Of a stretch of 64,000 nucleotides of DNA, positions 9,509 through 44,506 are shown piece after piece. Under the pieces are notes generated by a model, which saw only the letters and a program-made list of their open reading frames with translations, did no database searches and was not told the origin of the DNA. A program made the position numbers and the translations under genes. The DNA comes from Longimicrobium sp. (GTDB taxonomy: Bacteria; Gemmatimonadota; Gemmatimonadetes; Longimicrobiales; Longimicrobiaceae). Location: assembly GCA_036377595.1 (NCBI GenBank), contig DASUYB010000104.1, positions 1 to 64,000 of the forward strand, in the 5' to 3' direction. How positions within the stretch are numbered: position 1 is the first letter of the stretch; each line of letters starts with the position of its first letter.

Positions 9509-9860
9509 GCGGCGCCCTCTCCGGCTCGCCTAGGCTCGCCACCTCTCCCGTACCGGGAGAGGTAGGGGTGAGGACGTCCGCGCGGGTGACATGGATTCGC
9601 GCGGACGCGGAGTGGCCCCCTCCCCCGGCACCTCCCCCGCTGCCCAGGGGAGGGGAGAACTCAGCGCGGCGTCAGCACTTGCGTGAGGGATGCGCGCCCG
9701 GAGGGCCGGGACACCACCGCGCGCGCACCGTCGCCGCGTCAGGCGCGGATGGCCGGCGCGGTGGGGGCCCGGCGCCGTTGGCCACAGTTGTATCGTGGCC
9801 TACGGCGCGCGCAGCCCGTTTGGGCGTCTCAGCGCCCAACACGCCCGAATCCGCTGTTCA
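9509..9860 (+). repeat. ~350-bp dispersed structured element, copy 1
   Basis: Nearly collinear with 44151-44506 in the same orientation. It contains a hairpin ACCTCTCCC/GGGAGAGGT (about 9541-9563), a C/G-rich hairpin around CCTCCCC...GGGGAGG, a palindrome GGCGCCGTTGGCCAC/GTGGCCTACGGCGC, and a terminal hairpin TTGGGCG-TCTCAG-CGCCCAA. In two hairpins the differences from copy 2 are compensatory. No protein-coding frame is shared. The element ends 39 bases before the peroxiredoxin ATG, so it may form part of its leader. Confidence 0.85.
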
Positions 9861-44150: not shown

Positions 44151-44506
44151 GCGGCGCCCTCCCCGGCTCGCCTTAGGCTCGCCACCCCTCCCGTACCGGG
44201 CGGGGTAGGGTTGAGGACATCGGCGCGGGCGGCGGGGATTCGCGCGGCGGCGGGCTGGCCCCCTCCCCCGGCCCCTCCCCCGCTGCGCAGGGGAGGGGGG
44301 AACTCAGCGCGGGGGCGGGCACTTGCGTGAGGGATGCGCGCCCGGAGGGCCGGGACACCGCCGCGCGTGCGCCGTCGCCGCGGGTTCGCGTGGATGCTCG
44401 GCGCGGCGGGGGCCCGGCGCCGTTGGCCACAGTAGTATCGTGGCCTACGGCGCGCGCAGCCCGGTTTGGCGTCTCAGCGCCAAACACGCCCGAATCCCGC
44501 TGTTCA
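44151..44506 (+). repeat. ~350-bp dispersed structured element, copy 2
   Basis: Copy of 9509-9860 in the same orientation; long blocks are identical, such as GGGATGCGCGCCCGGAGGGC. The hairpins of copy 1 are kept: ACCCCTCCC/GGGCGGGGT in place of ACCTCTCCC/GGGAGAGGT, and TTTGGCG-TCTCAG-CGCCAAA in place of TTGGGCG-TCTCAG-CGCCCAA. It ends just before the region of the next plus-strand gene, as copy 1 does. Confidence 0.85.

What the first reader, a model, noticed from the sequence alone, without database searches (positions are those of the whole stretch)
9509..9860. ~350-bp dispersed element with compensatory base changes
Copies at 9509-9860 and 44151-44506 share long identical blocks. In two separate hairpins the copies differ by paired substitutions that keep pairing: T-A to C-G in ACCTCTCCC/GGGAGAGGT versus ACCCCTCCC/GGGCGGGGT (a neighbouring pair is lost in copy 2), and G-C to T-A in TTGGGCG/CGCCCAA versus TTTGGCG/CGCCAAA. 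Both copies lie in the same orientation directly upstream of a plus-strand gene. This suggests a structured RNA, a mobile leader/promoter module or a MITE-like element maintained for its folding.
Basis: seen in the sequence. Interest (0 to 1): 0.75.

Follow-up and report, generated by a model that had tools for sequence, protein, structure and literature searches.

The report
Multi-copy structured repeat in Gemmatimonadota
The finding is one copy of an apparently undescribed, roughly 175-base DNA repeat that sits between genes in dozens to over a hundred places in a few related bacteria, and whose copies keep the same elaborate folded shape through matched pairs of mutations; it most likely spreads as a small parasitic element rather than controlling the gene next to it.

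Summary
The 350-bp unit is a composite of two independent dispersed repeats: L (about 150 bp, CTCTCCC hairpins) and R (about 175 bp). R has a 52-pair fold with a perfect four-way junction and a GNA loop. About 66 R copies occur in this 7.2-Mb genome, at least 150 in G001, 59 in G003, and a diverged set in G040. The covariance model finds none in three other same-genus genomes, and a strict core pattern finds only one fragment outside the genus among 395 genomes of the phylum. In 167 copies from four species 95.6% of pair cells pair, and 29 of 52 pairs show double compensatory changes, some fixed between species. R is almost always intergenic, with near-random orientation, diverse neighbours and no dedicated partner gene. 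Same-site copies in two species are no more alike than random cross-species copies: concerted evolution. No Rfam, phage, plasmid or viral match to R. Best explanation: a new non-autonomous, fold-dependent interspersed element of the broad REP/BOX/"mobile-repeat candidate" kind, spread by an unidentified factor. It is not a leader RNA. Whether the folded form is RNA or single-stranded DNA is unresolved.

The parts
9679..9852 (+). R element, copy 1 (full covariance-model match)
   Evidence: CM R1 182.7 bits; MFE z = -3.8
9681..9685 (+). P1 5' strand GCGTG (pairs with CACGC at 9840-9844, closing the element)
9696..9706 (+). P3 hairpin GCCC-GGA-GGGC; where read, the loop in the family is GGA 113, GAA 20, GCA 3 or GACA 3
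9707..9770 (+). P4/P5 stem with hypervariable apical loop
9771..9807 (+). P6 hairpin with conserved loop AGTTGTATC; clear compensatory changes
9820..9839 (+).
9513..9665 (+). L module, copy 1: separate dispersed repeat with CTCTCCC hairpin (9541-9563), found without R elsewhere
44323..44497 (+). R element, copy 2
   Evidence: CM R1 189.3 bits; MFE z = -2.5
44156..44308 (+). L module, copy 2

Best explanation
R is a small non-autonomous interspersed element (about 175 bp, possibly plus a short ...CAGTTC tail). It multiplied to dozens or more than a hundred intergenic copies in a few species of one Gemmatimonadota genus. What is selected is the folded single strand: P1 closes the ends, P2-P3-P4-P6 form a perfect four-way junction, and P7 branches where P1 meets P2. 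The likeliest mechanism is that an enzyme encoded elsewhere recognises this fold and copies or moves the element, so that only correctly folding copies spread; gene conversion or turnover then homogenises copies within each species. Shown: copy number, conserved fold with compensatory change, intergenic placement, patchy distribution, presence/absence at orthologous sites, loss of orthologous signal. Inferred: mobility in trans, recognition of the fold, selfishness. L is a second hairpin-bearing repeat that often sits just upstream and has been co-amplified with R in this genome.
For: Copies: 66 strong CM matches in the own genome; 59 in G003 and 150 (the cap) in G001; a diverged family in G040. 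Strict core pattern: 58/165/46 hits in G000/G001/G003, one in another genus, none in 391 other genomes of the phylum. Structure: 0 of 500 shuffles reach the observed covariation in A1 and A6; in 167 sense-strand copies 95.6% of cells pair and 29 of 52 pairs have double Watson-Crick changes, 23 of them in 3 or more copies; pair 20 is G-C in nearly all copies of three species and A-T in all 23 G040 copies; GNA loop rule. Intergenic in 143 of 144 copies and in all orientations. R-free intergenic sites in relatives. Concerted evolution: orthologous copies rank on average at 0.42 and 0.51 of all cross-species pairs.
Against: No transposase or other partner was identified. Y1 transposases occur also in genomes without detected R, and none of the loci read has R within about 1.5 kb. 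No target duplication or clean empty site gave exact ends. Persistence at about 16 shared sites in two species suggests slow movement or some host benefit. There is a weak excess of copies reading with flanking tandem genes (61 versus 40).
Confidence: 0.62

Rival explanations
1. R is a host-functional RNA module (transcript stability, processing or protein binding in untranslated regions), kept at each site by selection for its fold.
For: About 16 sites shared by G000 and G003 with the fold intact despite only about 65-83% sequence identity; on the plus strand G.U outnumbers A.C, 29 versus 11 cells and 18 versus 9 events, p = 0.06 by events; conserved loops.
Against: No copies detected in several same-genus genomes; diverse neighbours and both orientations; orthologous copies no closer than random pairs.
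Confidence: 0.2
2. R is neutral repeat debris; its palindromes only look covarying because template switching and gene conversion repair imperfect hairpins.
For: Concerted evolution is evident; intergenic regions here are rich in other repeats.
Against: Invariant unpaired positions and the GNA loop rule; double changes in the long-range helices P1, P2, P4 and P5 as well as in local hairpins; a hypervariable apical loop beside near-invariant stems.
Confidence: 0.1
3. R is the guide or scaffold RNA of a transposon nuclease or recombinase (HEARO/omega RNA, bridge RNA), present mostly as orphan copies.
For: Size, fold complexity, hypervariable loop and many orphan copies.
Against: No Rfam match to R at E <= 10 nor in diverged copies up to E 0.5; no nuclease or recombinase family recurs beside 138 + 135 flanking genes; the variable loop is replaced by a short hairpin in many G001 copies. 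IS110, TnpB and IscB were not searched genome-wide.
Confidence: 0.05

Closest known systems
Mobile/repeat sequence candidates such as MRSC-65-2 (PMC11109978)
   Same: Dozens of copies per genome, inconsistent orientation to genes, strong covariation, RNA or DNA form undecided
   Different: MRSC-65-2 is a single long stem spread over many phyla and sometimes near a transposase gene; R is a multi-helix four-way junction found, so far, in one genus plus one fragment in another
BOX / RUP / SPRITE repeats of Streptococcus pneumoniae (PMC3049150)
   Same: Lineage-restricted small interspersed repeats with extensive structure and slow movement, judged parasitic by the authors
   Different: Different organism; R has a larger fold; no sequence comparison with BOX was run
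REP / REPIN with RAYT (TnpA-REP) (PMC3116915, PMC3733652, PMC8266576)
   Same: Extragenic, structured, high copy; a folded single strand is the proposed recognition form
   Different: REPs are 20-40-bp palindromes with an associated Y1 transposase; R is about 175 bp and no Y1 gene read here has R nearby
Stem-loop sequence families (PMC2267715)
   Same: General class of repeated intergenic sequences that fold
   Different: R is more complex than a stem-loop; Gemmatimonadota coverage of that survey was not checked

Membership tests
REP/REPIN with RAYT | Short (20-40 bp) palindrome as the repeat unit | tested here: not met
   Conserved unit is about 175 bp with six or seven helices
REP/REPIN with RAYT | Dedicated Y1 transposase gene flanked by the repeat | tested here: not met
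   Y1_Tnp in 6 of 7 genomes including some without detected R; no R match in the 8 Y1 loci read; the remaining Y1 genes were not read
MITE | Short, high-copy, intergenic | tested here: met
MITE | Terminal inverted repeats and target-site duplication | tested here: inconclusive
   Only 5-bp GCGTG/CACGC at the ends; no duplication evident in the flanks; no clean empty site
MITE | Ends shared with an autonomous transposon in the genome | not tested
Cis-regulatory leader RNA / riboswitch | Consistent placement upstream of, and co-directional with, a gene class | tested here: not met
   >R> 61, <R< 40, >R< 17, <R> 15; varied gene families
HEARO/omega RNA or any other Rfam family | Covariance-model match | tested here: not met
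   No match to R at E <= 10; in diverged copies at E <= 0.5 only one chance microRNA hit outside R
Retron / retroelement RNA | Reverse transcriptase in the host genome | tested here: not met
   No RVT_1 match in G001, which has the most copies
Structured mobile/repeat candidate (broad kind) | Covariation beyond shuffled and slid controls | tested here: met
   R-scape itself was not available
Structured mobile/repeat candidate (broad kind) | Many copies per genome with inconsistent orientation to genes | tested here: met

The most novel reading that the evidence does not exclude
R is a complex structured RNA (perfect four-way junction, GNA loop, conserved apical motif) that itself directs its own spread or homogenisation through an unknown RNA- or fold-recognising machine, in a lineage whose copy-richest genome has no detected reverse transcriptase: a new class of small mobile structured nucleic acid.
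Probability: 0.15. Interest if true: 0.8.

Novelty: new member of a known kind. Interest (0 to 1): 0.5.

Why it matters
Structured interspersed repeats are common in bacteria, but few are known to have such a complex fold with such clear compensatory evolution. Copy number ranging from none detected to over 150 within one genus, with copies at shared sites homogenised within each species, gives a natural system for asking whether the fold or the sequence is what spreads, and which enzyme reads it.

Tried and rejected
Rfam at gathering and permissive thresholds: no family. Viral contigs, plasmids and phages: no R match; two plasmid hits of 49 bp fall outside R, in the L/spacer part. Leader or riboswitch reading rejected on orientation and neighbours. 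RAYT association rejected as far as read; retro-mobilisation disfavoured. Empty-site comparisons gave R-free intergenic regions, but flanks were too diverged, or filled with other repeats, to fix the ends. A search for collapsed R sites found only one, in G003. Placement just downstream of terminators: seen in some G040 and G001 copies, not general. The pair count included 11 antisense self-matches and the G005 copy and is inflated; one search is the clean count. RNA-model searches of 60 and 40 relatives failed on the server. P7 subtypes are misaligned by the model, so its non-pair cells are overstated. Literature searches for repeats in Gemmatimonadota gave nothing relevant.

Full report
Observation. 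The two copies are present at the stated places, 89% identical over 352 bp. Searching the window's own genome with each half shows that the unit is composite: the left half (L, about window 9513-9665) and the right half (R, 9679-9852) each occur without the other.

R and its fold. Thirty-seven own-genome copies align with a hypervariable patch in the middle and nearly invariant blocks on both sides. RNAalifold gives one structure, which I extended by hand with P7: P1 closes the element; P2, P3, P4 and P6 meet without unpaired bases in a four-way junction; P5 carries the hypervariable loop; P7 sits between P2 and P1. On this alignment 97.8% of cells pair, and none of 500 shuffles and no slid control reaches the covariation. 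The window copies refold into it on their own (z -3.8 and -2.5).

More species. A covariance model finds 66 strong matches in the own genome, 59 in G003 and 150 (the cap) in G001, and one weak match in G005. A DNA search later showed a diverged family in a fourth species, G040, of which 23 copies were read. Species differ by fixed or near-fixed double changes, for example pair 20 (P4) G-C to A-T in all G040 copies, P2 pair 10 G-C to T-A, and several P5 pairs. Over 167 sense-strand copies 95.6% of cells pair and 29 of 52 pairs have a double Watson-Crick change. The P3 stem hardly varies, but its loop obeys GNA or GNNA wherever read (GGA 113, GAA 20, GCA 3, GACA 3), which fits a folded plus strand, as RNA or as ssDNA. 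The consensus-fold energy exceeds the mean single-fold energy on both strands (structure conservation index 1.36 plus, 1.34 minus). On the plus strand G.U outnumbers A.C 29 to 11 in cells and 18 to 9 in events (p = 0.06 by events), modest support for plus-strand RNA.

Distribution. The exact 31-base core occurs in one record in a scan of 84,980 species genomes (near relatives of the own genome may be left out there), a Gemmatimonadetes MAG, where R is a 34-base fragment next to a transposase-like reading frame. A slightly looser pattern over 395 genomes of the phylum hits only G000, G001, G003 and one genome of another genus. This pattern misses diverged copies, as G040 shows, so it reports absence of the strict core only; for G002, G004 and G006 the covariance model also found none.

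Placement. Of 144 copies in three species, one overlapped a called gene. With both neighbours called: >R> 61, <R< 40, >R< 17, <R> 15. Neighbouring proteins belong to many families without a recurrent transposase or nuclease.

Evolution. Sixteen sites carry R in both G000 and G003. There the copies differ mostly by compensated pairs, yet an orthologous copy is no closer than a random copy of the other species (mean rank 0.42 and 0.51), while the best paralogue in the own genome is clearly closer. This points to concerted evolution or local replacement; the two were not separated. At the window's copy 1, G003 has an L-type repeat followed by TTGCGTG-GGGGA-CACGCC, which reads as R collapsed to its P1 ends, probably an internal deletion; G001, G256 and G040 have short intergenic gaps there. 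At another site, L240, G001 has a 77-bp gap without R.

Companions. CTCTCCC-type repeats lie within 220 bp upstream of R in 74 of 144 copies and downstream in 8; AGTGCG-type repeats show the reverse tendency, 10 upstream and 32 downstream. In G040 most copies are followed directly by an AGTGCG repeat. R thus sits in polar mosaics of intergenic repeats.

Mechanism. Many copies, patchy presence, no fixed context, a fold conserved over sequence, and homogenisation within species fit a parasitic element recognised by shape. No mobilising gene was found: Y1 transposases do not track R, and reverse transcriptase was not detected in the copy-richest genome. Transcription could not be tested.

Known kinds. 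Published work describes structured mobile/repeat candidates (PMC11109978), BOX/RUP/SPRITE (PMC3049150), REPINs (PMC3116915) and stem-loop families (PMC2267715). R behaves like these, belongs to none of the specific families tested, and has no Rfam model. I rate it a new family of a known kind, unusual for its fold.

Noticed in passing
L311 (G003 contig C124, about 82380): The orthologous place of window copy 1 holds TTGCGTGGGGGACACGCC: R reduced to its P1 ends, probably an internal deletion.
   Followed up: partly
L128, 5021-5054 (and L291): A perfect 34-base R fragment in a different genus, directly beside a transposase-like reading frame.
   Followed up: partly
G001 contigs C184, C174, C153, C31, C51, C10, C46 at base 1: Several contigs of this assembly begin inside an R copy, so R breaks assemblies and its copy number may be underestimated.
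   Followed up: no
L160 upstream of R; L325, L342, L343 beside R: Further intergenic repeat families, GTAGGGGCGAGG... and AGTGCGNN tandem or inverted arrays, polarised around R.
   Followed up: partly
G000 contig C65, about 4977-46350: Five L copies on one contig, each followed by a second CTCTCCC-type hairpin in opposite orientation instead of R.
   Followed up: no
G001 copies such as L165, L167, L175: P5 is shortened and its loop resembles the P6 loop motif (CAC-AGGGGTATC-GTG), so one fold shows the same apical motif twice.
   Followed up: no
six of 23 G040 copies in alignment A6: Pairs 13, 14 and 33 around the junction change together, suggesting a subtype with a shifted four-way junction.
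   Followed up: no
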